Positions 10,131 through 63,399 of a DNA stretch of 64,000 nt are shown here, in pieces; position 1 is the first letter of the stretch; each line of letters starts with the position of its first letter. Source of the DNA: Apium graveolens (Eukaryota; Streptophyta; Magnoliopsida; Apiales; Apiaceae); NCBI RefSeq assembly GCF_009905375.1, contig NW_027420793.1, positions 1 to 64,000 of the forward strand. Direction: 5' to 3'. The notes beneath the pieces are model-generated. The model was not told the DNA's origin. It was given only the letters and a program-made list of their open reading frames with translations, and made no database searches. The position numbers and the translations under genes are program-made.

Positions 10131-10208
10131 CTTCTTGCTTCTACAAGTTGGAGTACCCTGTGACTGTTTTATGCTTGAAACATATATCCTTCAAGAGGTT
10201 TGCATGTT

Positions 10209-10216
10209 AATTTATA
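10209..10216 (-). promoter_or_regulatory. Putative TATA box of gene A, unit 1
   Basis: TATAAATT on the minus strand, about 80 bp upstream of the chosen ATG (10130). This predicts a transcript start near 10180 and a short leader. It is conserved in unit 2 at 51478-51485. Confidence 0.5.
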
Positions 10217-11837: not shown

Positions 11838-11945
11838 CTCTTTTTTTTGATACAGAGGGGGGGGGGGGGTGGGATGCGGAATGAAGCTGAGTTCATTTCA
11901 ACATTGTGGATACGCTTTTACCACTAGGCTATCACCTTACGCTCA
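11838..11945 (-). mobile_element. tRNA-derived SINE, unit 1
   Basis: On the minus strand an A-box-like TAGCCTAGTGG (11921-11931) is followed 34 bp later by a degenerate B box (GCTTCATTCCGC, 11876-11887). A C-rich run, a TCT-containing stretch and an oligo-A tail (11840-11850) follow. This order fits a Pol III-type plant SINE. It sits 50 bp beyond the gene B stop codon. On the + strand the C run appears as a G homopolymer (11857-11869), which differs in length in unit 2. Confidence 0.65.
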
Positions 11946-11996
11946 AGAGAACCTTATGCAGATTGTTCTATATTGTTGAAACTTTAGTTTAATTAG

Positions 11997-16140: not shown

Positions 16141-16200
16141 AGTTAGGAGGCGATTAAGTGCTAAGTGAGTTCGAGTTCCCCTACGTGTTTACCTGATATT

Positions 16201-16290
16201 GAGCATATAGGACATATATTCTTCCATTGCCTATTTGCAGTTCAGTGTTGGCGATATGTAGGTATTTGGTACTTCATGAATAGGAAAGTC
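16201..16290 (+). pseudogene. LINE reverse-transcriptase zf-RVT remnant, unit 1
   Basis: The + strand reads EHIGHIFFHCLFAVQCW then RYVGIWYF before a stop at 16291. The pattern E-x-x-x-H-x-F-x-x-C-x-x-A-x-x-x-W is typical of the zinc-binding region after RT in plant non-LTR retroelements. The RNase H part that normally follows is found at 30078-30491, on the far side of the Tat element. The two halves were therefore contiguous before that insertion. A copy is at 57465-57554. Confidence 0.65.
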
Positions 16291-16354
16291 TAGGACAACA
16301 AGGTTGCAACTGTTGAGGTGACTATGGATTGAGGAAATAAATCTATTGCAAAAC

Positions 16355-16359
16355 GTACT
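16355..16359. repeat. Target-site duplication, left side of Tat element
   Basis: GTACT directly precedes the LTR start at 16360. GTACT also follows the right LTR at 30031-30035. Five bases is the normal length for Ty3/gypsy integration. Unit 2 reads GTAT here, one C missing. Confidence 0.85.
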
Positions 16360-17600
16360 TGTTGACGGAGGAATCTGGCAACAACAAAGATTGAGGTTTA
16401 TCGCCGGAACTAAGATCTGTGACGGTGGTTCTTTGTCGGAAACTTAAGCGGTGTGTGGTTGATTGTAGTTGTTTTAGGATAAGATTGATCAGAGTAAGTG
16501 GTAGCTCTCTTATCAGCTCTCTTATCAGCTCTCAACTTCTTACCCTCTCAATGTGCCTACGTACCCTTTATATAGGGATCAAGCCTGACGTAATTCTCGC
16601 AGAACAAGAAGTCTGATGGGTTTAGACTTCTTATTCCTAAGTCCAGTAGAAGCCCATCTAATATCCGTCTTCCGCTAGCTTTAGGAATGTCCAACTATGA
16701 GGCCCAACCGCGAAGGCCCAAGGCTCGTCCGTAATCGCAGGACTTCACGGATAGTGCATCTCCCTCCGCAAGGATAACACTCCGCTACAGCTATCTCCCT
16801 TGATTTACGAACGCAGGTATAGCCACGGTTCACCCCAAGTGTCAGACGCGTCTCTGTCCCCCGAATGAGGATAACCCATCAGATAGTAGGACAGGTGATC
16901 CCAAGCTCTTGGGTACAAGGTACAGGATGACTCCAAAGTTCTCCAACGAGGACACCCGTTGAATACAAGAACAGAGCTCCCAAAGCACACACCAAAGTTA
17001 ACCCGCATCCCCAACGAGGACACCAGTAGAATACAGGAGGAGGCCTTCAATCATCAGGCATACCCTGGAGGCCTTCTAGCTTTTCACGGACATCCCCCTC
17101 ATTGACCGTCTCAAGGAGGGAATTCTTCAAAAGAGTACCTGCACAAATATATAGTAAAATAACCTCCATTGCTCCTCTCCAGGCAAGTTTTTCTCCTGAA
17201 GTCACCAATTAAGAACACATAAAACAGACAAGGACGCTCCTAGAAACATAGGGCGCGTCCCTAACCCTCATTATACTTGCACCGTCCCCTCTAAACCATC
17301 ATGCACAACCATTTCACTTCCTACGACGCGTCATGGTTTAAAGTAGGTGCGTCCTACAAGCGTCCATCGCCATAAATCTCATCGGCCAAGCACTTTCATA
17401 AACATCGACGCGTCCATATTTCCCGTGCGCGTCCTTCTTGACCATGCACTCATCTTGCCTCGTAACATATCCCTTCCAAAACAGGCGCGTCGTCTTTAGC
17501 TGGACGCGTCCTAGTCATCTTCAATGTAACACCGAGTTTTGACTCGTAACCAGCCCGCGTTTGACCCAAGTCAATCTAGTGCCAAATTTTGGGCATAACA
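16360..17600 (-). repeat. 3' LTR of Tat-type element (left), unit 1
   Basis: Runs TGTTGACGG to GGGCATAACA on the + strand, 1241 bp. It differs from the right LTR by scattered substitutions, a duplicated TCTTATCAGCTC block (about 16508-16531) and many single-base indels in 17100-17550. In that part unit 2 and the right LTR agree with each other. Several CGCG motifs lie in its U3 part (16845-17510). Confidence 0.92.
16565..16574 (-). promoter_or_regulatory. TATA box in left Tat LTR, unit 1
   Basis: TATATAAAGG on the minus strand, the counterpart of 29001-29010 in the 5' LTR. In this 3' LTR it would drive outward transcription toward the LINE remnant. Confidence 0.6.
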
Positions 17601-17617
17601 ACTAACCCCCAAATTCC
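17601..17617 (-). promoter_or_regulatory. Polypurine tract of Tat-type element, unit 1
   Basis: On the minus strand GGAATTTGGGGGTTAGT lies directly before the TG of the 3' LTR. This is the expected plus-strand priming site. Confidence 0.65.
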
Positions 17618-17785
17618 ATTTGTGTTGAAAATAAAATTGGAATTTCTTTCCAAAAAGCAAAATTTGGCTCACAGGACGCGTCATTGACAGAAGACGCGCC
17701 TTGCCTTCACTCCATATCTGTGGTGTACAGCTTGTCGCCCACGTAAGCCGACTATCCTCTATACATATCTTCCTCCAACCCACAA

Positions 17786-20700
17786 ATGCACCTTACTCTT
17801 TTTCTCTCCGGAAACCACCATTACGTCGCCGTTCTCAAGCTTTTAGCTCAAAATTCCGACGATTTAACCTCCCATTACTTGATTTCTCTTGCTCAATCAA
17901 CTCCCCAACTCAAAAGGTACACAAATCTCCCTCTTATTTCTTTATTTAGCAAGTACATTAGTTTTAATGAGCAAGAAACTGTTCGCATGCTTCATGTTCA
18001 TATCAACTGCCCTTCATATTCTTTTGTATGTATATGTGTATGTATATGCGAATATACCATATTTAGCTTCCCCCATGTTTCAATTGCATGTTTCTAAGAT
18101 TTCATTGTATTTCCCCCAAATTGCTAACAGTCGATTAACATTCTACCACATTGTAACCACGTAGGACGCGTCTACCTGTAAAGGCGCGTCTTATTTCCTT
18201 TGTTTAAGGCATATGTTTAAGCCATTTTAACTAAAGACCGCATAGGAACAACAATTTACTAGGACGCGTCTAACTAATGCATTCCACACGTTAGGTTCCT
18301 AGGACGTGTCCTATAATGTCTCTAGTAGCTTCATCATAATTCATTCATTTTCCTTCTCCCTCCCCCCTTTTTTTTCGACGCGTCCTCAAATGTTTATTCC
18401 TTCTTTTGCAGCTGGAGGACGCGTCATCTTCTTCCCCTTTCCATCCATTCAAGGTTCTCAATAAACGCATTGGTATCTACTCCCCACACTTAATCACTTT
18501 CATACCCGATTTTCCCGAAATTCACAGGACGAGTTCCTTCCTTAGAGCAGAAAGACACGTCTTTGGTTTCCCTTAAATCAAGAAGCTCTATATGTTCTGA
18601 TTCCAGCTCTGACTCCATGGATTCATGTCCCCATAAGTTCTAGAATGAAAAGAAGGGAGTTAAAGGCAAAGAACTCCAGTTCTCCATACAAGGGCCGCCA
18701 TCAAAGATGGACGGACGATGAGATTGTTCCTGCTACAGGCCAAAAGCCCCCGAGGGACAGCTGTTTCAGACGAGGACGCGTCCTACTCTCAGGACGCGTC
18801 AGCTTCCCAAGGTGCGGCTCCTTCTCAGGACGGTCACCTCTCAGCGTAAGTGAATTTGAAAAGAGGGTTCCTGACCCGAGACATATCCTATTTCCCCTAA
18901 AAATCTGATTCTCCCCTGGAACATTGGGAACCTTCATATGTTGAAGTGGATTGTGTCTGGGCCAGGCTTGGCCACCCTAACTGAGACAGAGAAAAATGCC
19001 AGAAGGAAGAAAGAAGGTAAGCTAGCATGTGTTGCCCTTGACTTGACTGCGACTGACTGGGAAATCCAATGGCATATGAAATACTATGACATGGAGGGCA
19101 TCTGGGAGCGCCCCTCTTCGAACCATGAGGCCGCACTCTTTCAACGTTGGGAACCAAAGGATCCAAAGAATGGTGCTTACTCCAAAGTTAATTTCCTTGG
19201 GTGTGGGCGCGCCCTTACACCCCTACATTAAGAAAATTTTGAAATGGTACGACGTGGCTCCAGTCCAACTATCACCAAATTCATACAAGCTAGCCTGGGC
19301 TCTGTTCATTATGTACCATAACCTGAGATTGGGCGCGCCCTCGATGAAAGAATTTAGCTTCTTCTACAGCATCAAGAAATCAATTCCCGAGTACCACTTC
19401 CTGGTTGTCAATAAATGGTTTGAACAACAAAGGATTTAATGAAGTAAAATCAGCCATGAACGGGACTGGAAGGAGCCATTTTCTACATTTATGATGTCAA
19501 AAGGACGCGCGTTCGCTTCAACTTGGAAACCAAGTAAGTTCAATGTTTTGGACGCGTCCTCATCTATCAGGGCGCACCTTTTCTTTATAACCTTCTCTTC
19601 TTTTCCTTGTTGTAACCTATTCTCCCTTCTCTAGACAAAAGAACTCAGAAAGAGCTAACAGGAAAGAAGAAGAAGAGAGCAGAGAAGGTTTTACAGTATG
19701 CTGAGAACATTTCAACCTCAAGGACATGATTACCAAAGAGAATTTAAAGAAAATAGGAGCTTTGTCCCCACGGGTGGATTCTCTCTGCAAATTTCGAGAT
19801 TTCATAATGGGAAACCCATCCTCACATACTTCCGAAAAATCCAAAGGGCTCCGAGCCACAAAATTATTCAGCCAGGCGGTTAACAAAAAGGTGGATTTAG
19901 AGCAAGGTAAGAAATTATATACTTAAGACGCGTCACGGATTTAGGACGCCGTCATATTTATTCTCACCTTTGTCCTTTAATTTAGCCTGATTATAAACGT
20001 TTACTCACATATGCGCTATCACCTTGGGCGCGGCCCTACCCCCGGGCGCGTCTCTTTATAAAACTCTCCGATTGCTGTTATTATGCCTTTATAAAAAGCG
20101 TCTTAGGTAAGACGCGTTACTTCTTTAGGACGTGTCATTCTCACACTCATTTATACATCTTTACATTCGTCTATATATGTCATGCATGTAGAATTTTATA
20201 TCATGATATGGGCGCGTCTTATTTCCAGGACGCGTCTTCTTATACTTAACTAATACCTTTTCATATTTATATCGCAGATATGGCCTCTCTTCTCAAAGGA
20301 TTCGCAATTGGGGCCTCCAAAAAGCTAAGGGCCAAAAAACAGGCCCCTACAGAGGTTGATCCAAAGGCAAAAACCCCCCCTCCTGTTGCAACTCCTTCTC
20401 CTCCACCCAAGATAATTGACACCACTGTGCTAGACATTCCCGAAAGGGTGGAGGACGCGCCCTCCCAAACACCAAAAGGTAGTGTCAGATGATCAATCCT
20501 TCGTGCTTCGATATTTGGGTGCGTCCTCAGTTGGGGATTTCCCAGAGGATGAAGTCAAAGGTTGGACCTTCAGAACAGAGCAGCAAACAGAGGAGGCCAT
20601 GGTGAGGGCTACTGCTGAGCTCCACTTGCACGCTAGGCAAAGTGCTAATATGGCTGCAAGGCTTAGGGCGCGTCTTGTTGCTACCGACACTACAAAGGAG

Positions 20701-21220
20701 CCAGGCCGAAGACAAAGTTAAATCCCTGGAGAATTACATTACCCTGCTTGTCCAAGAGAAATATGCTGAGATCAAACGCCTGGAGGGGGAGAGGGACGCG
20801 TCTTGAGGCAGACAAAGCTGTGCTAGAAGGGAATGTCTCCTCAATGGAGAAGCAAATGGACAGTATCATCGCATTGAATTCCACCATGCAGCTGAAGCTT
20901 GACACCCTAAATGATGACATGCTGCATGGGTGGAACATAGGAGAAAAAGCTAGTTTACCAGCACGGCTTCCAGGCTGGGTTTGAAGAATGGTGTTCTGGG
21001 TTCATTGCCAATGACCCGGGGTATACATTTTCAAAGTTTAATGCAGACACCCAGATATGGGTCAATGATTTCAGGGTCAGGGCCGCAGATTCCATCAAGA
21101 AACAAAAGGATTTTTCTGGGCTTAGAGGAAGAGGACGCGTCCCCTGATCCTGCTCCGCTTCAAACTCAGCCTCCCCCTACGGAAGACCAAGACAAGCCAC
21201 AGGACGCGCCTCCTGCTTAG
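17786..21220 (+). pseudogene. Antisense ORF of Tat-type element with gypsy-type 'transposase' domain, unit 1
   Basis: Multi-exon reading frame opposite to gag-pol. A first exon (17786-17916) ends at a GT donor, and later coding resumes after an AG near 18411. A block around 19160-19440 (PLHPYIKKILKWYDVAPVQL, then SPNSYKLAW) resembles the plant 'putative gypsy type transposon' domain (Transposase_28). A basic, Pro-rich stretch from 20280 (MASLLKGFAIGASKK) and a long heptad-like helical region (20580-20930) precede an acidic tail ending in TAG at 21218-21220. Introns are suggested at 19535-19634. In unit 1 it is broken by many 1-bp indels; unit 2 is cleaner. CGCG motifs inside it read as Asp-Ala-Ser/Pro. 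Its function is not known. Confidence 0.6.
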
Positions 21221-22157
21221 GACGCGTCCTTTGTCTTTTATGTACTCGAGCTATTTTAAGGGTGCGGGCCCCTTGAAGCCTTGCAAGTTGTAATATCTAT
21301 TTTTGAACTTCATTCGCCTGCACTTTTTTATAAACCTCTTTGCCTTATCCATGCATATTTTTACTTAAGTATTCTATTTTTCCATTCACATGGGCGCGTC
21401 TTATTCGTAGGACGCGTCTATTTTGACTATCACAAGTCAAGCAAAGTAACCGTCTTGGGCGCGTCCTCCTTGACTGGATGCATCTTTTAGTTATTTAATG
21501 AATATTTTTGTTTGTAAAAAACATATGAGCATAGCACCATGTTGTACCTGCGTATTTAATCAAGGCACAAGGCTCAATTGGGCGCGTCTTATGGTTTTGA
21601 CGCGCCTCACCTTCAATCCAAAACACATCATCCTTCAGGTAGGACGCGTCCTAAACAAGGACTTTTCCTTTTTAATCATGTTTCATCAAAGTTACAGTAA
21701 CATTCAGTCTAAAAGAGCATCAACCAAGACAACTTGGGCGCGTCCTTGGAAATAGTACACTTCCTAGTTACATTTTGACTTGAGTTTTTATTGATCCTTT
21801 TGACAACCATTAATTCAGTTAGCATTCGCATAAACCATCAATCAGGATGCCGTCCTATAGTTAGGACGCGTCATGCAACCAGGCAAACAAAGCAAGTAAC
21901 TTTTTGGGAAAAAATTTCAAAGATTTTTATTTATAATGCGCTCTGGTGTCAAAAGTGCACCAGTTCCCATGGCTACTATGCTCTGTGGGGAGATAAATTT
22001 TAAAAATGACCCTTCAACTAGTTCCAAGGTAAGTAGTACATGCACTACCCCCTAGGCTAGGAGGAATTTATTTAATTCTAGCCTATAATCCGGGCATAAC
22101 CCTAAATAATAAAAGAGGTACGTAAGGGACCAAAGCCGCACCTTACTAGTAATACTT
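21221..22157. other. Convergent 3' region between antisense ORF and pol, unit 1
   Basis: About 0.9 kb without a supportable ORF. It separates the antisense ORF end from the integrase end on the other strand. It holds ten CGCG motifs, including the pairs 21395/21413 and 21583/21601. Transcripts from both strands would meet here. Confidence 0.6.
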
Positions 22158-23492
22158 TCAGAGATGTTTCGCATTCCAAGCTCGCGGAACCATCTTCCCT
22201 TCCATATCTTCAAGGTGATAAGTCCCCTTCCACGGGATGGACTTTATACGGTACGGTCCTTCCCAGTTAGCTCCAAACACTCCATGTTTGGGGTTCTTTG
22301 TATTGGGCATCACTTTCCTAAGTACCAAATCTCCCACCTTCAGCAATTGTCCCTTTACTTCTTGTTATAATACCTTGCGGCGCGTTGCTGATACGCCGCT
22401 AGCCTTAGCTGAGAATTTTCCCTCATCTCCTCTAAGAGATCTAAATGAAGCATTTGATTAACCTCAGCATCTTCTTTCCTGTAACAATCTCTGCGAAGTG
22501 ATCCCGATCCAACTTCCCACGGGGACCATAGCTTCGTAGCCGTAAGTCAGCATAAACGGCGTTTCTCCCGTAGTAGATCGTGGCGTAGTGTTGTATGACC
22601 ACATCACCTTCGGGAGTTCTTCAGGCCAATTCCCTTTGCGTTCCTCCAGTTTGGTTTTGAGGGTATGCTTTATTATTTTGTTAATAGCTTTTGTCTGTCC
22701 ATTACTTTGAGGATGATAGACCGCTGCAAACTCCTTCTTGATTTTCAACTCCTTACATAGTTGTCGCAACTCCTTGCTATCAAACTGCTTTCCATTGTCG
22801 GAGACAAACTTGTAAGGGATTCCAAACCTACATACGATGGAGTTGAAAACAAAATCCCTGATTTTCTTTGCGGTGATAGTAGCCAGTGGCATAGCTTCCG
22901 CCCATTTAGTAAAGTAATCGACCGCAACCACTGCATACTTGACGTCTCCTTCAGCTTTCGGCAATTCTCCGATAAGATCAATTCCCCACATGGCGAATGG
23001 CCACGGGCTTGCCATAGGCGTCAAGAGTGTCGCCGGCATAGATGAGTAGTTTGCAAAGCGCTGGCAGCGATCACATGCCTTGACAAAATTTGTAGCATCT
23101 TCTTTCATTGTGGGCCAATAATATCCCTGGCGCAAAACTTTCATTGCCAACGAGCTACCCCCCGAGTGATTATCACAGATTCCTTCATATACTTCTCTTA
23201 GGATGTAATTTCCTTCTTCTTCTTCAACACATCTAAGCAGAGGTTGGTTGAACCCTCTCTTGTATAGGACTTCGTCGTATATCACATATCTTGCAGCCTG
23301 ATAGCGGAGTCGGCGAGCCTTAAACTTATCCTCGGGGAGTATTCCCTTGCGAATGTAAGCTAGAATGGGCGTCATCCATGTTTCCTTGGAAGCCTCATCC
23401 ACTTGCATAGTTTCTATCTCTGGGATACTAGGAATCTCCTGGATTTCAAAAGGGATGGATCCTAACAACACAGCCTCTTGTTGCGACCCCAT
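22158..23492 (-). pseudogene. Tat-type integrase, unit 1
   Basis: Minus-strand frame with the zinc-binding HHCC region (about 22990-23190), a catalytic core carrying Asp in GIDLIGELP and Asp in VSDNGKQFDS, and a C-terminal GPY-type region (GANWEGPYRI) ending at 22158. The position of the catalytic Glu reads Lys (codon AAA at 22689-22691, in NGQTKAINK), so the DDE triad is incomplete. A frame break near 22460 separates the C-terminal part. Unit 2 has one T fewer at the same homopolymer. Confidence 0.88.
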
Positions 23493-23582
23493 TTTGCTAG
23501 AGCATCCGCATTACTGTTCTTCTCCCGCGGGACACATTCCAATCTAACTTTTTGAACATTCCAATCAAGCGCTGTGTACATT

Positions 23583-23880
23583 TCAAGTATAATTCTGTTC
23601 GCGGGCCTCGCGCTTCAATCCCCCGTTCACTTGATTCACTACCAACTCTGAGTCACTCCTTGCAATCAGTTTTGCACCCCCCATTTCCAAAGCGATTTTT
23701 AGGCCATTAATCAGTGCCTCATACTCCGCATCATTATTGGTTGCATAAAACTTGAAATGAATTGCGCTCATCAGAGTGGTGGCCTTCCGGAGACACAAGT
23801 ACTATACCCGCACCAGCTCCCCCATTGTTAACCGCCCCATCCATATGCAAGATCCACCAAGGGTGTGGAAACTCCTCCAA
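23583..23880 (-). pseudogene. Second (archaeal-type) RNase H of Tat-type element, unit 1
   Basis: Reads HMDGAVNNGGAGAGIVLVSP, then (after a frame change near 23780) NNDAEYEALINGLKIAL and ARSDSELVVNQVNG. These contain the Asp, Glu and Asp expected of an RNase H. A second RNase H after the retroviral-type one is a hallmark of the Tat lineage. Confidence 0.85.
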
Positions 23881-25700
23881 AGACTCCTCAGCATGAGGTG
23901 GATGTAGCATTACCAAAGCTTTATCATCAATTTCAGAATCAAATTCCAACAAGAAATCGGCTAAGGCTTGCCCTTTTATCGCTGTTCGGGGCGTATATTC
24001 CAAATCAAACTGTCCCAACTCCATAGCCCATTTCAGCATTCTTCCTGATGACTCTGGTTTATGCAGGACTTGTCGCAGCGGGTACGCTGTACGAACTTCA
24101 ACTCTATGGTCCTGAAAATACGGCCGCAATTTTCTTGATGCAAGAATCAGGGCATAAACCAGTTTCTCCATGCTTGTGTAGCGAGTTTCAGCGTCGTGTA
24201 ACCGCTTTGCTCACATAGTACACTGGTGATTGATGCCCATCTTCCTCTCTTACCAGAACTGCACTGATCGAATATTCAGACACTGCGAGGTACAGTATTA
24301 GAGATTCCCCATCCAACGGCTTTGACAACATGGAGGGTTTTCCCAGTTGCTCCTTGATTCTTTTGAAAGCCTCTTCGCATTCTGACGTCCATACAAAGTA
24401 TTTTCCTGCTAATTTAATTGCCTTGAAAAATTCCTTGCATCTATCGGACAACTTGGAAACAAATCGATTTAACGCGACGATTCTCCCAGTCAAACTCTGC
24501 ACCTGTTTCACATTAGTGGGTGACTTCATATCCATTAATGCCTTGATCTTTGCGGGATTGGCCTCAATTCCCCCCGTGTTTGATAATGAACCCGAGAAAC
24601 TTGCCCGACTCCACGCCGAACACACACTTTAACGGATTTAATTTCATACGAAACCTCCTTAGAATGTTAAACATCTCCACCAGGTGCTTGATGTGGTCAC
24701 TTGCCACCTCAGACTTTACCAACATATCATCCACATACACTTCCATAGTTCTCCAGATTTTATCCTTGACCATCATGTTTACCAACCGCTGGTAGGTTGC
24801 GCCAGCATTAATCAAACCAAACGGCATTCATATGTAACAGTATAACCCCCTGTCCGTAATGAAGGATATATGTTCTTGATCGGGGCCATACATCGGAATT
24901 TGATTGTAACCGGAGTATGCATCCATAAAACTCAACAACGTATTCCCCGCCGTCGCGTCAACCAACTGATCGATTCTTGGCAGCGGGAAGCTGTCCTTTG
25001 GACAGGCCTTATTGAGATCTATGAAATCCACACATGTCATCCACTTCCCATTCGGTTTCTTCACCAGTACTGGATTTGCAAGCCATTCGGGGTAGAAAGA
25101 TTCTTTGATCAACCCCACCTCCAACAACCGGTCTACTTCTTCTTTTAATGCTATCGCCCTTTCTCCACTTACTGGGCGGCGTTTCTGACGTATGCCCTTG
25201 CAATTCGGGAGGATATTCAAATGGTGACACATTACTTCTGGGTCGATTCCTATCATATCTGAATGACTCCATGCGAAGACATCAAGATTTGCAATTAGAA
25301 AGCGGGTAAGACTTCCTCTCATCTCATCATCCAACTGGGATCCCACTTTCAAAACCTTGCTCGGGTCATTTTTATCAACTGGAATAGATATTGTGTCTTC
25401 GGTTGGTCCCGTCTTTTCGGCGGGCATAGGGATCCTGGGATCCAAATCGAAATCAAAGTCTCGGGGGTCTTCGACTTCCACTTTTGCATCTGAGGGCGCG
25501 TCCTCGTTTGGAGTAGCATCAACCTCAATTTCATTCAAGGGCGCGTCCTTCTTTCGAGGAGCATCCACCTTGAAGTTATTCCCGAGACCTTGCAAAATCT
25601 CACTTCTTCCTTCCAACTTTTCCCCGTTAACCTCTTTCTGTATGATCGCCTCTGTATGGTTCACCACCACTTTTTCCACGCTACGGATCTTCGAAAACAC
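23881..25700 (-). pseudogene. Tat-type reverse transcriptase and RNase H, unit 1
   Basis: Begins with an acidic linker holding two CGCG motifs read as DAP (25496, 25542). RT follows, with VDFIDLNKACPKDSFPLPRI, a stop at about 24828 just before MPFGL, the catalytic YVDDMLVKS (about 24725), and the LGFII region. The first RNase H runs from about 24320 to 23985 (LADFLLEF end). Frame changes near 24600 and 24180, together with the stop, make it non-coding as written. Confidence 0.88.
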
Positions 25701-26631
25701 GTCCCCGCGTCAAAAAAGAGTTCCCAGAGACGTAGGTTTCTTCCTTTTCGGGGCCTTCAATGAAATAGTGGCCATGGACCTCTCCACTTGGTTTTGTATG
25801 AATATCTTCTACATCCTCAAATAGGAGACATTTCCCTTCATACCTTCTTCTACGGAATTCCTTAACAGCCTTGTGATAGCAGTCGCGTGACTCATACTGT
25901 GACCCTCTCAGACTGCCCACTCCGTTTGGCGTTGGGAACTTTATCATCAAGTGGTATATCGAGGTTATCACCCTGAACGCTCGCAACCAAGGTCTGCCGA
26001 CCAGCACATTGTGCACGGAATCCTGATCTAGCACCTTGAAATCTATCATTTGAGTAACCGACAAAGCTCCTTCCCCGAGCATGACGGGAAGCCTGACCGA
26101 ACCCATAACCCTCACTGCTTCCCCAGTAAAGCCATAGACGTGCGCATCTTCGAAATACATGTCGCTATCTGGGAAACCCAGCTTTTTGTAGGTGTTGTAG
26201 TACAAGATGTTTGTAGAACTCCCATTATCCAAGAAGACTCGATGTACGTTCATTACCCCAATAAGCATGGTAATCACCAGCGCATCGTTGTGAGGATGAT
26301 GCACCCACCTAGATTCTTTTTCCTTGAACATAATATCAGCGGACTCTCCCTTAAAGACCTTCGGGGGTCTATCTTCCAAGTTGTGGATGTTGGTGAGCGG
26401 TGGATGTCGCGCTTCTCTCGCGTTACTCTCCAGTGCTCGATTACTATCACCAACGAAAGGGTGTCCTCCAAAAATTGCCCTGATACTGCCAGCCCTCTGA
26501 AACTTGACCTCTGTTGTTTTTTCAACATCCTCCGCCCGCGGGGGCTGTCTTTCATCCTTACCCTTGTCATCAAGTCCCCTGCGTCGCTTCACCTTGTCAA
26601 TCCATTCTCCTAGGTATCCAGCCTTGATCAA
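25681..26631 (-). pseudogene. Tat-type aspartic protease region, unit 1
   Basis: One open frame of 316 codons on the minus strand. The protease active site is VFLDNGSSTNILY (about 26200-26240), with a later hydrophobic VLVGRPWL flap region. The zinc knuckle CDYHESTGHDTHEC lies just upstream in the same frame (26659-26700). The frame shifts at about 25690 into the RT frame. Confidence 0.85.
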
Positions 26632-26710
26632 TTCCTCAATCTCATCCCGCAGGTGACGACACTCATGGGTGTCATGGCCAGTAGACTCATGGTAGTCACA
26701 ATACTTCCTT

Positions 26711-28752
26711 TTAGTCTCTGCTCTGCCATGAAGTTAGACGGTCGGGCCTCTTGAAGATTCCTCTATCCTTATTTACCTCGAAGATATGATCAATGGACGC
26801 CGCTAGTGGTGTATAATTGCTGACCCTTCTCTCGTAGTTCGACGGTGGGCTCCATTCTTTCCGCGAGCTCACAGTGTTCACCCTGTTAGGGCTTCTGGCA
26901 TTTTGCCGATAATCTGGGCTCAAGGATCTGTCCCTTCTCTTGGATCGCCCCTTGGAGTTATGGTTATTGTCATTCTTTTTTGTTTCTGCAAGCGATTGCT
27001 CGATTGCTTTGAACGACTCCGCCTGCGCAAGCACATCAGCTAGTGACACTGGGTCCTTCCTTGCAGGTGCTTCCAGAAATCCGTCCCCATACGCAAACCC
27101 AGCTATAAGCAGTATTTTCAGTGTTTCATCAGTTGCACCCCTCACCAAAGTGGATTCTGCATTAAACCTCTTAAAATACGAAGTCAAACTTTCTCCTTCC
27201 TTTTGTTTCACATTAGCCAGCGTGGTAACATGTGGTTTGTACTTCACCGCGGCTTGGAATTGTGTCAAAAATAAAGTTTTCAATTGTTCCCAGGATGTGA
27301 TCACACCTGGACCAAGTTTTTGGAACCACTGCTGAGCGCCTTCTCTAAAAGTGGCTGCCAGGAGACGGCACCGAGCCAAATCAGGTACTTGATATACGTC
27401 CATTTCAATGTTAAAACGCCCCAGGAATTCCACAGGATCAGAGTTCCCATGAAAACGCAAGTCATTGGTTGTGTTCCTGTATCCTGCGGGCAATTGCGCC
27501 TCCCTCACGACAGCAGCAAAAGGAGAAGGAGCTTGCGCAGTCGCCGTTACTCTTCCTCCCTCAAGATGGTTGAGCAATCTCTTGAGGTCGTTCACATTAA
27601 ACGTCCCTACCCCAGGTATGGTTTGAACATTAGACTGTTGGAGTTGCTCTGCGACTTGCTGAAATTCCCCTTGATTGCCCCCCGGGTGTGGCGGAGGATC
27701 TCGCCGCCCCTCGCCCTGAGGCTGCGGCGTGGCATGTTACCATTTTGGTTTTGAATATTTTCCCGCACGCGAGGTTCATCTTGACCGCGTCGCGAAATTT
27801 CATCATTGTTCTGCATTCTTACTTGAATTCGTCCGCCGTCCTGGTCATGAGGACGCGCCCCAGACCCATTACCAGTAGCACTGTGGGAAGCTACGGGAAC
27901 AATGGCGGGGGCTTCTCCAGCGGAGTGTGCTCTACATCTCCTACCATTGTAGGGTGTTCTTCCATATTGATATCCCATTCTTCCTCGTCCATTCCTCTGA
28001 TATCCCCGATAGTAATTCTCGGACCTTCCTCGCGGAGGGGCACGCTCGTGATCGCGGTGTCGCGCCCCGTCATCCCTTTGGAATGCGGGGGGCACACGCG
28101 TCGTGTCACGGGGCCTCGCTTCTCCGGCGTTTCCTTCTTTTTGCCATTCTACCAGTAACATCCTCAAATCATCGTCTTCCAATCTTATGTCAAGCCTCCT
28201 TTTCAAGGATGAAAGATCCCTTCATTCCTCGTCTTGATTTTGAGTGTTCTCCGCACGACGATGCTCGTCCATCGTACGCCCAGACCTATGTGGGTGCGAC
28301 ACTACCTGGTTACCCAGGCGAGGCCTTTCTCTGCCATCAGTGTCCTCATCCGCAAGCTCCACAATAGGCTCTACATCATCAGAGTACTCCAAGCGTCGTG
28401 GAGTGATTCGCGGGTTTTCCCCGCTCCCCTGGGTATCTCCTTCAACTACAGGGGCTTTTTCCAAGGCATGACCGTGACGGGGGAAACGACGACCTCTCAT
28501 CATCCTTCGACGCTCCACCGTGTTCAGTCTTGAGTTAAAACTGTTAAGAGTATCCCCCATGCGATACAATTGCTCCAAGATATCAGCGTTGTTGATGAGA
28601 ACTGGAGGTGTCTCCCCCACATTCGGAGCTCTTGCTGGATCCGCCATGTTTCTGGGAACGTAAGGTTCATGGCGAGTATAGCGCCCCCCGCCTTCTCCTT
28701 CAGACCTGCTATCACTTCCATCATAAGAACTTCCATCACGATCGTAAGACAT
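26711..28752 (-). pseudogene. Tat-type gag, unit 1
   Basis: The N-terminal part (28752-27607) is highly charged, with an acidic Ser/Gly-rich start MSYDRDGSSYDG and Arg/Gly-rich stretches. A stop at about 28220 and a frame change near 27600 interrupt it. The capsid core (27595-26711) shows the retrotransposon gag pattern DPVEFLGRFNIEMDVY, AQQWFQKL and ESLTSYFKRFNAE. A basic Ser/Arg tail leads toward the zinc knuckle. It would coat the element RNA in cytoplasmic particles. Confidence 0.85.
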
Positions 28753-29000
28753 CTTTTCCTCCTAAGATTGCAACCTTAATTAGCAGCCCCTCCTTCGAGT
28801 GCCAATTTGTTGATGGAGGAATCTGGTAACAACAAAGATTGAGGTTTCTCGCCGGAACTAAGATCTGTGACGGTGGTTCTTTGCCGGAAACTTAAGCGGT
28901 GTGTGGTTGATTGTGGTTGTTTTAGGCTGAGATTGATCAGAGTAAGTGGTGGCTCTCTTATCAGCTCTCAACTTCTTACCCTCTCAATGTGCCTACGTAC

Positions 29001-29010
29001 CCTTTATATA
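29001..29010 (-). promoter_or_regulatory. TATA box of Tat-type element
   Basis: TATATAAAGG on the minus strand, about 200 bp from the inner LTR edge. This predicts a start near 28975 and leaves roughly 165 bp of R-U5. Confidence 0.7.
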
Positions 29011-29278
29011 GGGATCAAGCCTGACGTAGTTCTCGCAGAACAAGAAGTCTGATGGGTTTAGACTTCTTATTCCTAAGTCCAGTAGAAGCCCGTCCAATAT
29101 TTGTCTTCTGCTAGCTTTAGGAATGTCCAACTATGAGGCCTAACCGCGAAGGCCCAAGGCTCGTCCGTAATCGCAGGACTTCACGGATAGTGCATCTCCC
29201 TGCGCAAGGATAACACTCTGCTACAGCTATCTCCCTTGATTTACGAACGCAGGTATAGCCACGGTTCACCCCAAGTGC

Positions 29279-29945
29279 CAGACGCGTCCCTGTCCCCCGA
29301 ATGAGTATAACCCATCAGATAGCAGGACATGTGATCCCAAGCTCTTGGCTGCAAAGTGCAGGATGACTCCAGAGTTCTCCAACGAGGACACCCGTTGAAT
29401 ACAAGAACAGAGCTCCCAAAGCACATACCAAAGTTAATCTGCATCCCCAACGAGGACACCCGTTGAATACAGGAGGAGGCCTTCAATCATCAGGCATACC
29501 CCTGGAAGCCTTCTAACTTTTCACGGACATCCCCCTCCTTGACCGTCTCAAGGAGGGAATTCTTCAGAGAGTACCTGCGACAAATACATTAGTAAAAATA
29601 ACCTCCATTGCTCCTCTCCAGGCAAGTTTTTTCCTGAAGTCACCATTAAGAACACATAAAACAGACACAGGACGCGTCCTAGAACATAGGGCGCGTCCTA
29701 ACCCTCATTATACTTGCATCGTCCCCTCTAAATCATCATGCACAACATTTCACTTCCTACGACGCGTCATGGTTAAAGTAGGTGCGTCCTACAGCGTCCA
29801 TCGCCATAAAATCTCATCGGCCAAGCACTTTCATAAGACGCGTCCATATTTCCCGTGCGCGTCCTTTCTTGACCATGCACTCATCTTGCCTCGTAACATA
29901 TCCCTTCCAAAACAGGCGCGTCGTCTTTAGCTGGACGCGTCCTAG
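29279..29945 (-). promoter_or_regulatory. CGCG-box cluster in U3 of the Tat 5' LTR
   Basis: Upstream of the TATA lie CGCG cores at about 29282, 29673, 29692, 29763, 29839, 29858, 29917 and 29936, plus a decayed one at 29783. Three pairs (29673/29692, 29839/29858, 29917/29936) are 19 bp apart. ACGCGT is a known form of the plant CGCG box bound by calmodulin-binding (CAMTA) activators. Binding here is inference. Confidence 0.5.
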
Positions 29946-30030
29946 TCCTCTTCAATGTAACACCGAGTTTGACTCGTAACCAGCCCGCGTTTGATCCAAA
30001 TCAATTAAGTGCCAAATTTTGGGCATAACT

Positions 30031-57622: not shown

Positions 57623-58865
57623 TGTTGACGGAGGAATCTGGCAACAACAAAGATTGAGGTTTATCGCCGGAACTAAGATCTGTGACGGTGGTTCTTTGTC
57701 GGAAACTTAAGCGGTGTGTGGTTGATGTAGTTGTTTTAGGATAAGATTGATCAGAGTAAGTGGTAGCTCTCTTATCAGCTCTCTTATCAGCTCTCAACTT
57801 CTTACCCTCTCAATGTGCCTACGTACCCTTTATATAGGGATCAAGCCTGACGTAATTCTCGCAGAACAAGAAGTCTGATGGGTTTAGACTTCTTATTCCT
57901 AAGTCCAGTAGAAGCCCATCTAATATCCGTCTTCCGCTAGCTTTAGGAATGTCCAACTATGAGGCCCAACCGCGAAGGCCCAAGGCTCGTCCGTAATCGC
58001 AGGACTTCACGGATAGTGCATCTCCCTCCGCAAGGATAACACTCCGCTTACAGCTATCTCCCTTGATTTACGAACGCAGGTATAGCCACGGTTCACCCCA
58101 AGTGTCAGACGCGTCTCTGTCCCCCGAATGAGGATAACCCATCAGATAGTAGGACAGGTGATCCCAAGCTCTTGGGTACAAGGTACAGGATGACTCCAAA
58201 GTTCTCCAACGAGGACACCCGTTGAATACAAGAACAGAGCTCCCAAAGCACACACCAAAGTTAACCCCGCATCCCCAACGAGGACACCCGTAGAATACAG
58301 GAGGAGGCCTTCAATCATCAGGCATACCCCTGGAGGCCTTCTAGCTTTTCACGGACATCCCCCTCATTGACCGTCTCAAGGAGGGAATTCTTCAAAGAGT
58401 ACCTGCGACAAATATATTAGTAAAAATAACCTCCATTGCCTCCTCTCCAGGCAAGTTTTTTCCTGAAGTCACCATTAAGAACACATAAACAGACACAGGA
58501 CGCATCCTAGAACATAGGGCGCGTCCTAACCCTCATTATACTTGCACCGTCCCCTCTAACCATCATGCACAACATTTCACTTCCTACGACGCGTCATGGT
58601 TAAAGTAGGTGCGTCCTACAGCGTCCATCGCCATAAAATCTCATCGCCAAGCACTTTCATAAACATCGACGCGTCCATATTTCCCGTTGCGCGTTCCTTT
58701 CTTGACCATGCACTCATCTTGCCTCGTAACATATCCCTTCCAAACAGGCGCGTCGTCCTTTAGCTGGACGCGTCCTAGTCATCTTCAATGTAACACCGAG
58801 TTTGACTCGTAACCAGCCCGCGTTTGACCCAAGTACAATCTAGTGCCAAATTTTTGGGCATAACA
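57623..58865 (-). repeat. 3' LTR of Tat-type element, unit 2
   Basis: 1243 bp, TGTTGACGG to GGGCATAACA. It keeps the 12-bp duplication found in the left LTR of unit 1. It agrees with the right LTR at many places where unit 1 has private indels. TATA at 57827-57836 on the minus strand. Confidence 0.9.
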
Positions 58866-59023
58866 ACTACCCCCCAAATTCCATTTGTAGTTGAAAATAA
58901 AATTGGAATTTCTTTCCAAAAAGCAAAATTTGCTCACAGGACGCGTCATTGACAGAAGACGCGCCTTGCTTCACTCCATATCTGTGGTGTACAGCTGTCG
59001 CCCACGTAAAGCCGACTATCCTC

Positions 59024-59031
59024 TATAAATA
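59024..59031 (+). promoter_or_regulatory. TATA box of the antisense ORF, unit 2
   Basis: TATAAATA on the + strand, about 20 bp before the candidate ATG at 59050. A CGCG pair lies about 65-85 bp upstream (58942, 58960). Unit 1 has TATACATA at 17760-17767. It would allow the antisense ORF its own promoter. Confidence 0.5.
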
Positions 59032-59049
59032 TCTTCCTCCAACCCACAA

Positions 59050-62000
59050 ATGCACCCTTACTCTTTTTCTCTCCGGAAACCACCATTACCGCCGTTCTCA
59101 AGCTTTTAGCTCAAAATTCCGACGATTTAACCTCCCATTACTTGATTTCTCTTGCTCAATCAACTCCCCAACTCAAAAGGTACACAAATCTCCTCTTATT
59201 TCTTTATTTAGCCAAGTACATTAGTTTTAATGAGGCAAGAAACTGTTCGCATGCTTCATGTTCATATCAACTGCCCTTCATATTCTTTTGTATGTATATG
59301 TGTATGTATATGCGAATATACCATATTTAGCTTCCCCCATGTTTCAATTGCATGTTTCTAAGATTTCATTGTATTTCCCCCAAATTGCTAACAGTCGATT
59401 AACATTCTACACATTGTAACCACGTAGGACGCGTCTACCTGTAAAGGCGCGTCTTATTTCCTTTGTTTAAGGCATATGTTTAAGCCATTTTAACTAAAGA
59501 CCGCATAGGAACAACAATTTACTAGGACGCGTCTAACTAATGCATTCCACACGTTAGGTTCCTAGGACGTGTCCTATAATGTCTCTAGTAACTTCATCAT
59601 AATTCATTCATTTTCCTTCTCCTCCCCCTTTTTTTTTCGACGCGTCCTCAAATGTTTATTCCTTCTTTTGCAGCTGGAAGACGCGTCATCTTCTTCCCCT
59701 TTACATCCATTCAAGGTTCTCAATAAACGCATTGGTATCTACTCCCCACACTTAATCACTTTCATACCCGATTTTCCCGAAATTCACAGGACGAGTTCCT
59801 TCCTTAGAGCAGAAAGACACGTCTTTGGTTCCCTTAAATCAAGAAGCTCTATAATGTATGATTCCAGCTCTGACTCCATGGATCATGTCCCCATAAGTTC
59901 TAGAATGAAAAGAAGGGAGTTAAAAGGCAAAGAACTCCAGTTCTCCATACAAGGGCCGCCATCAAAGATTGGACGGACGATGAGATTGTTCCTGCTACAG
60001 GCCAAAAGCCCCGAGGGACAGCTGTTTCAGACGAGGACGCGTCCTACTCTCAGGACGCGTCAGCTTCCCAAGGTGCGGCTCCTTCTCAGGACGCGTCACC
60101 TCTCAGCGTAAGTGAATTTGAAAAGAGGGTTCCTGACCCCGAGACATATCCTATTTCCCCTCAAAATCTGATTCTCCCCTGGAACATTGGGAACCTTCAT
60201 ATGTTGAAGTGGATTGTGTCTGGGCCAGGCTTGGCACCCTAACTGAGACAGAGAAAAAATGCCAGAAGGAAGAAAGAAGGTAAGCTAGCATGTGTTGCCC
60301 TTGACTTGACTGCGACTGACTGGGAAATCCAATGGCATATGAAATACTATGACATGGAGGGCATCTGGGCGCGCCCTCTTCGAACCATGAGGCCGCACAT
60401 CTTCAACGTTGGGAACCAAAGGATCCAAAGAATGGTGCTTACTCCAAAGTTAATTTCCTTGGGTGTGGGCGCGCCCTTACACCCCTACATTAAGAAAATT
60501 TTGAAATGGTACGACGTGGCTCCAGTCCAACTATCACCAAATTCATACAAGCTAGCCTGGGCTCTGTTCATTATGTACCATAACCTGAGATTGGGCGCGC
60601 CCTCGATGAAAGAATTTAGCTTCTTCTACAGCATCAAGAAATCAATTCCCGAGTACCACTTCCTGGTTGTCAATAAATGGTTGAACAACAAAGGATTTAA
60701 TGAAGGTAAATCAGCCATGAACGGGACTGGAAGGAGCCATTTTTCTACATTTATGATGTCAAAAGGACGCGCGTTCGCTTCAACTTGGAACCAAGTAAGT
60801 TCAATGTTTTGGACGCGTCCTCTCTATCAGGGCGCACCTTTTCTTTTATAACCTTCTCTCTTTCCTTGTTGTAACCTATTCTCCCTTCTCTAGACAAAAG
60901 AACTCAGAAAGAGCTAACAGGAAGAAGAAGAAGAGAGCAGAGAAGGTTTTACAGTATGCTGAGAAACATTTCAACCTCAAGGACATGATTACCAAAGAGA
61001 ATTTAAGAAAATAGGAGCTTTGTCCCCACGGGTGGATTCTCTCTGCAAATTTCGAGATTTCCATAATGGGAAACCCATCCTCACTACTTCCGAAAAATCA
61101 AAGGGCTCCGAGCCACAAAAATTATTCAGCCAGGCGTTAACAAAAAGGTGGATTTAGAGCAAGGTAAGAAATTATTATACTTAAGGACGCGTCACGGATT
61201 TAGGACGCGTCATATTTATTCTCACCTTTGTCCTTTAATTTTAGCCTGATTTATAAACGTTACTTCACATATGCGCTATCACCTTGGGCGCGCCCTACCC
61301 CCGGGCGCGTCTCTTTATAAAACTCTCCGATTGCTGTTATTTATGCCTTTATAAAAAGCGTCTTAGGTAAGACGCGTTACTTCTTTAGGACGTGTCATTC
61401 TCACACTCATTTATACATCTTTACATTCGTCTATATATGTCATGCATGTAGAATTTTATATCATGATATGGGCGCGTCTTATTTCCAGGACGCGTCTTCT
61501 TATACTTAACTAATACCTTTTCATATTTATATCGCAGATATGGCCTCTCTTCTCAAAGGATTCGCAATTGGGGCCTCCAAAAAGCTAAGGGCCAAAAAAC
61601 AGGCCCCTACAGAGGTTGATCCAAAGGCAAAAACCCCCCCTCCTGTTGCAACTCCTTCTCCTCCACCCAAGATAATTGACACCACTGTGCTAGACATTCC
61701 CGAAAGGGTGGAGGACGCGCCCTCCAAACACCAAAAGGTAGTGTCAGATGATCAATCCTTCGTGCTTCGATATTTGGGTGCTTCCTCAGTTGGGGATTTC
61801 CCAGAGGATGAAGTCAAAGGTTGGACCTTCAGAACAGAGCAGCAAACAGAGGAGGCCATGTGAGGGCTACTGCTGAGCTCCACTTGCACGCTAGGCAAAG
61901 TGCTAATATGGCTGCAAGGCTTAGGGCGCGTCTTGTTGCTACCGACACTACAAAGAGCCAGGCCGAAGACAAAGTTAAATCCCTGGAGAATTACCTACCC

Positions 62001-62474
62001 TGCTTGTCCAAGAGAAATATGCTGAGATCAAAACGCCTGGAGGGGGAGAGGACGCGTCTTGAGGCAGACAAAGCTGTGCTAGAAGGGAATGTCTCCTCAA
62101 TGGAGAAGCAAATGGACAGTATCATCGCATTGAATTCCACCATGCAGCTGAAGCTTGACACCCTAAATGATGACATGCTGCATGGGTGGACATAGGAGAA
62201 AAAGCTAGTTTACCAGCACGGCTTCCAGGCTGGGTTTGAAGAATGGTGTTCTGGGTTCATTGCCAATGACCCGGGGTATACATTTTCAAAGTTTAATGCA
62301 GACACCCAGATATGGGTCAATGATTTCAGGGTCAGGGCCGCAGATTCCATCAAGAACAAAAGGATTTTTCTGGGCTTAGAGGAAGAGGACGCGTCCCCTG
62401 ATCCTGCTCCGCTTCAAACTCAGCCTCCCCCTACGGAAGACCAAGACAAGCCACAGGACGCGCCTCCTGCTTAG
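59050..62474 (+). pseudogene. Antisense ORF of Tat-type element, unit 2
   Basis: Cleaner copy of 17786-21220. A second exon begins after an AG at about 59672 (LEDASSSS). It runs through a Ser/Gln/Ala-rich stretch with three DAS repeats (60035-60110) to the conserved block PLHPYIKKILKWYDVAPVQL (60477-60536) and MKEFSFFYSIKKS (60606-60644). A GT donor follows NQ at about 60795, and an AG lies at 60893-60894. A basic exon with KKKKRAEK follows. The last exons start near 61540 (MASLLKGFAIGASKK) and have a long coiled-coil-like region (61860-62190) and an acidic Pro-rich tail ending TAG at 62472. A few 1-bp breaks remain (about 61860, 62190). The family resemblance is to gypsy-type 'transposase' proteins; no activity can be assigned. 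Confidence 0.6.
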
Positions 62475-63399
62475 GACGCGTCCTTTGTCTTTTATGTACT
62501 CGAGCTATTTTAAGGGTGCGGGCCCCTTGAAGCCTTGCAAGTTGTAATATCTATTTTTGAACTTCATTCGCCTGCACTTTTTTATAAAACCTCTTTGCCT
62601 TATCCATGCATATTTTTACTTAAGTATTCTATTTTTCCATTCACATGGGCGCGTCTTATTCGTAGGACGCGTCTATTTTGACTATCACAAGTCAAGCAAG
62701 TAACCGTCTTGGGCGCGTCCTCCTTGACTGGATGCATCTTTTAGTTATTTAATGAATATTTTGTTTGTAAAAAACATATGAGCATAGCACCATGTTGTAC
62801 CTGCGTATTTAATCAAGGCACAAGGCTCAATTGGGCGCGTCTTATGGTTTTGACGCGCCTCACCTTCAATCCAAAACACATCATCCTTCAGGTAGGACGC
62901 GTCCTAAACAAGGACTTTTCCTTTTTAATCATGTTTCATCAAAGTTACAGTAACATTCAGTCTAAAAGAGCATCAACCAAGACAACTTGGGCGCGTCCTT
63001 GGAAATAGTACACTTCCTAGTTACATTTTGACTTGAGTTTTATTGATCCTTTTGACAACCATTAATTCAGTTAGCATTCGCATAAAACCATCAATCAGGA
63101 TGCGTCCTATAGTTAGGACGCGTCATGCAACCAGGCAAACAAAGCAAGTAACTTTTTGGGAAAAATTTCAAAGATTTTATTTATAATGCGCTCTGGTGTC
63201 AAAAGTGCACCAGTCCCATGGCTACTATGCTCTGTGGGGAGATAAATTTTAAAAAATGACCCTTCAACTAGTTCCAAGGTAAGTAGTACATGCACTACCC
63301 CCTAGGCTAGGAGGAATTTATTTAATTCTAGCCTATAATCCGGGCATAACCCTAAATAATAAAAGAGGTACGTAAGGGACCAAAGCCGCACCTTACTAG

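What the first reader, a model, noticed from the sequence alone, without database searches (positions are those of the whole stretch)
17251..21872. Dispersed CGCG palindromes, paired at a fixed 18-19 bp, throughout one arm of a Tat retroelement
About 40 near-palindromes (GGACGCGTCC, GGGCGCGTC) sit in 4.6 kb of otherwise AT-rich DNA. At least 13 pairs across the two copies and the right LTR have CGCG starts 17-19 bp apart. Examples: 17677/17695, 18167/18185, 18777/18795, 20213/20231, 21205/21223, 21395/21413, 21583/21601, 61188/61206. They occur in LTR, introns, codons and untranslated DNA, so no single coding constraint explains them. Three noncoding pairs share the form GGGCGCGTCTTAT plus a short gap plus a second core. 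Constant phasing near two helical turns suggests a dimeric DNA-binding partner or a spreading mini-module, comparable in spirit to highly iterated palindromes in bacteria. CpG sites normally decay in methylated elements, so this density is odd. I know of no description of this.
Basis: seen in the sequence. Interest (0 to 1): 0.9.

Follow-up and report, generated by a model that had tools for sequence, protein, structure and literature searches.

The report
Paired CGCG sites in celery retrotransposons
A family of virus-like mobile elements in the celery genome carries dozens of copies of one short mirror-image DNA word, many of them set in pairs 18-19 letters apart, which looks like a docking array for a DNA-binding protein, possibly one that the element itself encodes.

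Summary
In 17251-21872 there are 41 CGCG against 6.9 expected, and 10 pairs 18-19 bp apart against 0.04 expected at 17-19 bp. The word is WGGRCGCGYCYT, nearly palindromic. The genome is celery; the element is of Tat/Retand type, with an antisense Transposase_28 (TRP28) gene between pol and the 3' LTR. The second window copy is a 99% duplicate, not independent. Twenty-five other copies and eight more diverged loci carry the array. CpGs in CGCG sites are kept in 1126 of 1291 cells, other CpGs in 1002 of 1459, though not under every conditioning. Several single sites gain an 18-19 bp partner in sister copies. Sister segments that do not align to this element still hold CGCG sites mostly 17-20 bp apart. 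Spacers are not significantly conserved. Best reading: a selected binding-site array, with the element's own TRP28 protein as leading but untested reader, comparable to VANC targets and Sirevirus palindromic boxes. Rivals: a host factor such as CAMTA, an RNA-level role, old module spreading. The period is about 1.75 helical turns, not two.

The parts
16359..17599 (-). 3' LTR of the Tat/Retand-type element (element lies on the minus strand); its U3 part holds CGCG sites 17254, 17327, 17409/17428, 17486/17505, 17556
   Evidence: blastn self-comparison, 93.8% to 28807-30029; sites
28807..30029 (-). 5' LTR; U3 pairs 29673/29692, 29839/29858, 29917/29936 (19 bp); TATA-like CTATATAAAG about 1.03 kb into the LTR, downstream of the CGCG sites
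22464..28761 (-). gag-pol region in separate open frames: Retrotrans_gag 26711-27736, RVT_1 (below Pfam cut-off) 24828-25709, integrase 22464-23510; only 3 GRCGCGYC sites in 22450-28800
   Evidence: Pfam, motif count
18580..19536 (+). antisense ORF exon 1 (limits inferred), Transposase_28 / TRP28 domain; frames appear interrupted in both window copies
   Evidence: PF04195 on the duplicate copy 60243-60848, 27.3 bits, cut-off 26.2; homologues; celery protein P0059
19640..19923 (+). antisense ORF exon 2 (limits inferred)
   Evidence: reading frame and P0059, compared by eye
20256..21217 (+). antisense ORF exon 3 (limits inferred)
   Evidence: reading frame and P0059, compared by eye
17675..17700 (.). 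motif pair, CGCG 17677/17695, 18 bp
18165..18190 (.). motif pair, CGCG 18167/18185, 18 bp
18775..18838 (.). four-site coding array: CGCG 18777/18795 in the window, 18813/18831 in 13 and 22 of 26 copies; period 18 nt = 6 codons
   Evidence: P0002 and P0038 show a 6-residue period of like peptides
19551..19580 (.). intron-1 pair: CGCG 19553 plus GGGCGCACC at 19571 (CGCG in 15 of 26 copies; spacing 19 bp in 16 and 18 bp in 7 of 25 copies, 20 bp in the window)
19927..19952 (.). intron-2 pair: 19929 plus 19947 (CGCG in 20 of 26 copies; not in this window copy, present in the duplicate as 61188/61206)
20027..20052 (.). intron-2 pair 20029/20047
20111..20136 (.). intron-2 pair 20113/20131 (second site CGTG in the window, CGCG in 6 of 26 copies)
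20211..20236 (.). intron-2 pair 20213/20231
21203..21228 (.). pair 21205/21223 at the end of the antisense ORF
21393..21418 (.). pair 21395/21413
21458..21484 (.). pair 21460 plus 21479 (19 bp; second site CGCG in 16 of 26 copies, not in the window)
21581..21606 (.). pair 21583/21601
21846..21872 (.). pair 21848 plus 21867 (19 bp; first site CGCG in 23 of 26 copies, not in the window)
58468..63152 (.). duplicate of the arm (window 41262-64000 repeats 1-22759); 99% identical, not independent

Best explanation
The sites are a selected array of protein-binding sites in a Tat/Retand-type LTR retrotransposon of celery. Shown: one 12-bp near-palindrome, WGGRCGCGYCYT, is repeated about 40 times in the pol-3'LTR arm and U3. 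Most noncoding sites of the family stand in pairs 18-19 bp apart with a spacer that is not significantly conserved. CpGs in the sites are kept in sister copies more often than other CpGs, and sites with the same spacing occur in sister segments that do not align to this element. By coating U3 and its own gene that protein would activate transcription or keep DNA methylation off the element, as VANC proteins do for VANDAL transposons.
For: Excess and spacing. In 26 copies (window included), partners at 18-19 bp of sites that are single in the window: 19573, 19947, 20131, 21479, 21848. Distances up to 60 bp within those copies: 169 of 288 are 17-20 bp, 139 of them 18 and 27 of them 19. CpG kept in CGCG sites 1126 of 1291 against 1002 of 1459 elsewhere; three-way control 0.888 against 0.759, higher in 243 of 243 non-independent copy pairs. 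Eight diverged loci (aligned blocks 79-84% identical): 302 CGCG in all, 84 of 133 distances of 3-60 bp are 17-20 bp. Three mutually non-homologous segments without a blastn alignment to the window element: 15 CGCG against 2.4, and 6 of 7 distances at 17-20 bp against 0.02 expected. TRP28 proteins: 13 of 16 read-through tails have a GRCGCGYC-compatible peptide in the first 12 residues, in all three frames, against a shuffle mean of 0.5, max 4; 14% of 12-residue windows over all the proteins hold one, which would give about 2. Eleven of the 13 fall at nt offset 14-22, and window site 19553 lies about 18 nt past the same exon end, counted by eye. TRP28 is in 97% of recent Retand clusters, is predicted to bind DNA, and has no known function (PMC11963269).
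Against: No binding was measured and the ligand is inferred. AlphaFold models of TRP28 were poor (mean pLDDT 48 and 58) and matched no solved structure, so DNA binding has no support from fold. Spacing in pairs is not significantly better kept against indels than control windows (4.7% changed against mean 25%, median 4%, P 0.11). Among CpGs kept in at least 70% or 80% of copies, CGCG-type and isolated CpGs do not differ (P 0.37, 0.53), while at 50% and 60% they do (P 6e-6, 0.002). Copies share ancestry, so many counts are not independent. Pol also has some excess of CGCG (17 against 9.2, within the shuffle range). The protein-tail evidence is indirect: the DNA of those sister elements was not available and several of the proteins are close relatives. 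A genome-wide count of pairs by spacing was not obtained.
Confidence: 0.45

Rival explanations
1. The sites are bound by a host transcription factor, CAMTA being the obvious candidate (CGCG box, vCGCGb, recalled), so that the element answers calcium or stress signals.
For: RCGCGY fits the CAMTA core. Sites cluster in U3 upstream of a TATA-like box. Sirevirus palindromic boxes matched mainly stress-factor sites in PLACE (PMC2829016, passages).
Against: A CAMTA core (recalled) does not need the conserved outer bases WGG..CYT, the 18-19 bp pairing, or sites through introns and exons of an antisense gene some 4 kb from U3. CAMTA papers were seen only as search listings.
Confidence: 0.2
2. The sites act in RNA: self-complementary GGACGCGUCC words near the 3' end of the genomic RNA mediate dimerisation, packaging or folding.
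For: Arm and 3' U3 lie in the 3' part of the genomic RNA (layout); the word is self-complementary; selection on RNA would also preserve CpGs.
Against: Does not predict a minimum and nearly fixed 18-21 bp spacing with no pairs at 3-17 or 22-39 bp; no folding test was run here.
Confidence: 0.08
3. A paired mini-module spread by template switching or gene conversion and then decayed, with no present function.
For: Three pairs share GGGCGCGTCTTAT; the coding array is an 18-nt tandem repeat; isolated CpGs that are widely shared are kept as well as motif CpGs.
Against: Spacers are near random, CpGs in CGCG sites are kept better than others overall, and sister segments that do not align to this element hold the same geometry.
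Confidence: 0.12
4. Coding constraint or composition: CpG-rich codons or GC-rich DNA create the words.
For: Some sites encode conserved residues (GAP in GVGAPLHP and GAPSM).
Against: Of 36 family-wide sites 22 are noncoding by the inferred exon limits, all three frames occur in sister tails, shuffles of equal dinucleotide content give one sixth of the count, and pol of similar GC has 3 strict sites.
Confidence: 0.03

Closest known systems
Sirevirus repeated palindromic motifs (RM boxes), Bousios et al. 2010, PMC2829016 (passages read)
   Same: Plant LTR retrotransposons; 8-32 copies per element of a family-specific palindrome holding CpG, in LTR and upstream of an extra 3' gene; upstream of a TATA box; ligand unknown
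   Different: Ty1/copia elements; core CGG-CCG (all but Tnd-1 of the 13 listed), not CGCG; no fixed pair spacing mentioned in the passages read; there the sites sit in LTR and upstream of ENV, here in U3 and through introns, flanks and some codons of an antisense TRP28 gene
VANC target motifs of VANDAL transposons, Hosaka et al. 2017 PMC5735166 and Sasaki et al. 2023 PMC10398659 (passages read)
   Same: Short motif repeated through noncoding parts of a transposon that also encodes an extra protein; motif family-specific
   Different: VANDALs encode a transposase and are DNA transposons; VANC binding and loss of methylation were shown by ChIP-seq, EMSA and bisulfite; YAGTATTAY-type motif in tandem repeats; relation of TRP28 to VANC not tested here
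Retand pol-3'LTR tandem repeats, Vicient 2025 PMC11963269 (parts 1-3 of 5 read, plus a find)
   Same: Same lineage type, same region, same antisense TRP28 gene
   Different: Reports head-to-tail arrays of 8-100 bp units; the parts read and the find do not describe dispersed palindromes or paired spacing. TRF finds only arrays of 1.9-3.7 copies in 16000-30100
Host CGCG boxes of CAMTA factors (recalled; listings only)
   Same: RCGCGY core
   Different: No extended palindrome and no 18-19 bp pairing that I know of (recalled)

Membership tests
Tat/Retand lineage element | antisense ORF with Transposase_28 between pol and 3' LTR | tested here: met
   PF04195 above cut-off on the plus strand of the duplicate copy while gag-pol is on the minus strand
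Tat/Retand lineage element | RT phylogeny | not tested
   RT is fragmentary in the window (RVT_1 below Pfam cut-off); no tree was made
Tat/Retand lineage element | long pol-3'LTR region (2.9-6.6 kb in PMC11963269) | tested here: met
   17600 to about 22460, roughly 4.9 kb
Sirevirus RM box | Ty1/copia Sirevirus host element | tested here: not met
   Ty3/gypsy-type gag match, and integrase downstream of RT
Sirevirus RM box | CGG-CCG core palindrome | tested here: not met
   Core is CGCG
Sirevirus RM box | high copy number and dyad symmetry, in LTR upstream of TATA and near an extra gene | tested here: met
VANC-type anti-silencing target | short motif repeated in the noncoding DNA of the element that encodes the binder | tested here: inconclusive
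   motif repeated, 22 of 36 family-wide sites noncoding; binder not identified
VANC-type anti-silencing target | protein binding and loss of methylation | not testable with these tools
   needs DAP-seq/ChIP-seq and bisulfite data
CAMTA CGCG box | vCGCGb core | tested here: met
   RCGCGY in the motif; core definition recalled
CAMTA CGCG box | bound by CAMTA | not testable with these tools
   no binding data

The most novel reading that the evidence does not exclude
The antisense TRP28 protein of Tat/Retand retrotransposons is a sequence-specific DNA-binding protein that reads pairs of CGCG palindromes spread through its own introns, flanks and U3 and protects the element from CpG methylation: an LTR-retrotransposon counterpart of VANC, whose target word may change between families (GRCGCGTC here, GGCGCGCC suggested by sister peptides) together with the protein.
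Probability: 0.35. Interest if true: 0.85.

Novelty: new variant of a known kind. Interest (0 to 1): 0.68.

Why it matters
TRP28 genes are in 97% of recently active Retand clusters and have no known role (PMC11963269). A defined, paired, family-wide DNA word next to and inside that gene gives a concrete target to test. If it is bound by TRP28 and counters silencing, it would extend the self-encoded anti-silencing principle from DNA transposons to a group of plant LTR retrotransposons. Even if the binder is a host factor, the array would be a regulatory input carried in many copies across a crop genome.

Tried and rejected
Second window copy as support: rejected, since it is a 99.1% duplicate with 154 gap openings and 40 mismatches.

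Helical phasing at two turns: rejected, 18-19 bp is 1.7-1.8 turns. Composition or coding as sole cause: disfavoured.

Sister DNA from public collections: viral contigs gave none in 3 scans. Genome contigs gave one integrase relative (35% identity) in a MAG contig, not used.

Indel suppression in spacers: not significant. CpG comparison conditioned on 70% or 80% retention: no difference. Codon test: 11 of 13 GCG codons in five antisense-frame stretches of the duplicate copy lie in CGCG, but GCG is not rare in pol frames (25 of 85 Ala), so it was not used as proof. The pattern had the gap one base short and is not used. The first alignment of copies left minus-strand loci unturned and was redone. 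A widened tail regex (16 of 22 against 1.6) placed three tails wrongly (P0038, P0041, P0053); one search is relied on. In the paired/single table I kept 36 sites; of the sites in five or more copies, four were dropped: 19508 (overlaps 19506), 19758, 19857 and 20870 (poor or no match to the motif). None of the four would add a noncoding single.
Full report
What the locus is. The window belongs to an assembly of 3,332,948,439 bases. One contig, C9, has 289,786,985 bases, which fits the N50 of 289.78 Mb given for the 3.33-Gb celery genome in the abstract of PMC8051603 (search listing only). I take the source to be celery, Apium graveolens. The element lies on the minus strand: 5' LTR 28807-30029, gag-pol about 28.8 to 22.5 kb, 3' LTR 16359-17599, LTRs 93.8% identical. 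Between pol and the 3' LTR is a plus-strand, hence antisense, gene with a Transposase_28 domain (PF04195, 27.3 bits against a cut-off of 26.2, found on the duplicate copy). This is the architecture of Tat/Retand elements (PMC11963269, parts 1-3 of 5 read); no RT tree was made. A celery protein with that domain (P0059) shows how such a gene may be spliced and was used, by eye, to infer exon limits. The reading frames appear interrupted in both window copies; they were not mended.

The observation. CGCG occurs 41 times in 17251-21872; 1000 dinucleotide-preserving shuffles give 6.9 on average and 17 at most; pol has 17 against 9.2, within its shuffle range. The 8-mer GACGCGTC is the most over-represented 8-mer of 17700-22000, 15 against 0.01. 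Context columns give WGGRCGCGYCYT, close to a 12-bp palindrome. Strict GRCGCGYC sites number 35 in 17200-22000 (7.3 per kb) and 7 in the 5' LTR (5.7 per kb), but 3 in 22450-28800 (0.5 per kb) and none in 7-14 kb (host transporter genes) or 38-44 kb (second Ty3/gypsy element). Ten pairs stand 18 or 19 bp apart, against 0.04 expected at 17-19 bp. When 34 sites are placed at random in 17600-22000 the mean is 0.76 and the maximum in 20,000 trials 6, against 8 seen. Between the 47 sites of the one-mismatch list no distance of 3-17 or 22-39 bp occurs. CpG observed/expected in 17700-22000 outside the motif is 0.50.

The duplicate is not evidence. Window 1-22759 is repeated at 41262-64000 with 99.1% identity, 154 gap openings and only 40 mismatches. 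Counts from the second copy were kept out of the significance statements.

Sister copies. A DNA search of the genome with window 20001-21900 listed 40 places out of 775 candidates, the window and its duplicate among them. Thirty loci were taken; the 25 under 98% identity to the window were used. At the window's CGCG sites, CpGs are kept in 1126 of 1291 cells; at other CpGs in 1002 of 1459. Because isolated CpGs may be recent gains, CpGs shared by two diverged copies were scored in the remaining copies: 0.888 against 0.759, in the same direction in 243 of 243 copy pairs, which are not independent; four single comparisons gave P 0.003, 0.045, 0.095 and 0.008. Against this, when positions are first chosen by how many copies keep CG, the difference holds at 50% and 60% (P 6e-6, 0.002) and is gone at 70% and 80% (P 0.37, 0.53). 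Across 26 copies (window included) 169 of 288 distances up to 60 bp are 17-20 bp: 18 bp 139 times, 19 bp 27 times, 17 bp twice, 20 bp once. Several sites that look single in the window have a CGCG partner in sister copies: 19929 with 19947 (20 of 26 copies), 21460 with 21479 (16), 21848 with 21867 (23), 20113 with 20131 (6) and 19553 with 19573 (15; spacing 18 or 19 bp in 23 of 25 copies), and the coding pair 18777/18795 is part of a four-site array of period 18. By the inferred exon limits, noncoding sites are paired 19 to 3, coding sites 5 to 9 (Fisher P 0.003; four sites dropped, see Tried and rejected).

Diverged subfamilies. A second search with window 17201-18500 listed 40 of 1816 candidates, down to 77% identity. 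Eight of the more diverged places were fetched. Six align over more than 4 kb at 81-84% and carry 40-50 CGCG each against 6-8 expected; two (L045, L047) align over 1.2 and 2.4 kb and carry 17 each against 2-3. Over all eight, 84 of 133 distances of 3-60 bp are 17-20 bp. Most telling are seven segments, 2962 bp in all, that lie between aligned blocks but do not align by blastn (E 1e-3) to the window element: they hold 41 CGCG, and 14 of the 17 distances up to 60 bp are 17-20 bp. Five of them are versions of one intron. With one representative of that intron and the other two segments, 15 CGCG are seen against 2.4 and 6 of 7 distances are 17-20 bp against 0.02 expected. The word and its geometry persist where the surrounding sequence has turned over.

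Other elements. TRP28 proteins, most without a named organism, one named from Heracleum sosnowskyi and one from carrot, were collected; by PMC11963269 the domain appears only in flowering plants. Of the 52 proteins then held, 16 run on for at least 8 residues past the end of the first exon. In 13 of these 16 the first 12 residues contain a peptide that GRCGCGYC can encode: GAP/GAS/DAS (5), RRA/GRV (4) and ARP/ARL/ARH (4), one set for each frame. Residue shuffles give 0.5 on average and 4 at most; 14% of 12-residue windows over all the proteins hold such a peptide, which would give about 2; the next 12 residues hold one in 0 of 8. Eleven of the 13 implied CGCG positions fall 14-22 nt past the exon end (two, P0005 and P0016, fall at 1 and 2), and the window's 19553 lies about 18 nt past the same point, counted by eye. 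Several of these proteins are close relatives of each other, and a peptide only allows, does not prove, the DNA word; the change of frame at one position is what makes a DNA-level explanation likely. [DG]AS also stands shortly before PFHPF in eight of ten proteins that hold PFHPF, as at window 18420, and P0002 and P0038 show a six-residue, 18-nt period of such peptides like that of the coding array.

Mechanism. A preferred spacing with a free spacer, better-kept CpGs and recurrence in turned-over DNA fit a binding-site array. A palindrome of about 12 bp suggests a homodimer; two palindromes 18-19 bp apart leave about 6 bp between footprints and lie about 1.75 turns apart, which suggests contact between neighbouring dimers on different faces of the helix. 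The array covers U3 and the arm that holds the TRP28 gene and largely stops at pol, and TRP28 is predicted to bind DNA (PMC11963269), so TRP28 is the leading candidate. The effect could be activation or, as with VANC, loss of methylation; sites with two CpGs each fit the latter. These last steps are inference. My structure predictions of TRP28 neither support nor exclude it.

Known or new. Sireviruses have 8-32 copies of family-specific palindromes, nearly all with a CGG-CCG core, in LTRs and upstream of ENV (PMC2829016, passages), and VANDAL elements have short motifs read by their own VANC proteins (PMC5735166, PMC10398659, passages). For Tat/Retand the literature searches made here (listings) and the parts of PMC11963269 read showed head-to-tail tandem repeats but no dispersed or paired palindrome. 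The library holds only open-licence papers, so this is no proof of absence. I file it as a new variant of a known kind: a repeated palindromic word of a plant LTR retrotransposon, with paired geometry and placement in an antisense gene as the new features.

Noticed in passing
window 1-22759 and 41262-64000: A 41.3-kb direct duplication at 99.1% identity with 154 gap openings but 40 mismatches: either a tandem duplication or an assembly duplicate with indel-type errors.
   Followed up: partly
window 35925-46124: A second Ty3/gypsy element with LTRs of about 1.7 kb (95% identical) and gag, protease, RNase H and integrase matches on the plus strand; CpG o/e is 1.2-1.7 in parts of the AT-rich DNA at 35-37 and 43-45 kb.
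   Followed up: no
window 8096-13637 (and about 49-55 kb): Two neighbouring PTR2 (POT family) transporter genes on the minus strand.
   Followed up: no
window 18775-18838: The motif array inside the antisense ORF encodes a QDAS/QGAA-type repeat of six residues, so the 18-nt DNA period equals a whole number of codons and keeps the frame.
   Followed up: partly
window 19208 and 19334: Two motif sites coincide with conserved GAP residues of the TRP28 domain (GVGAPLHP, GAPSM).
   Followed up: partly
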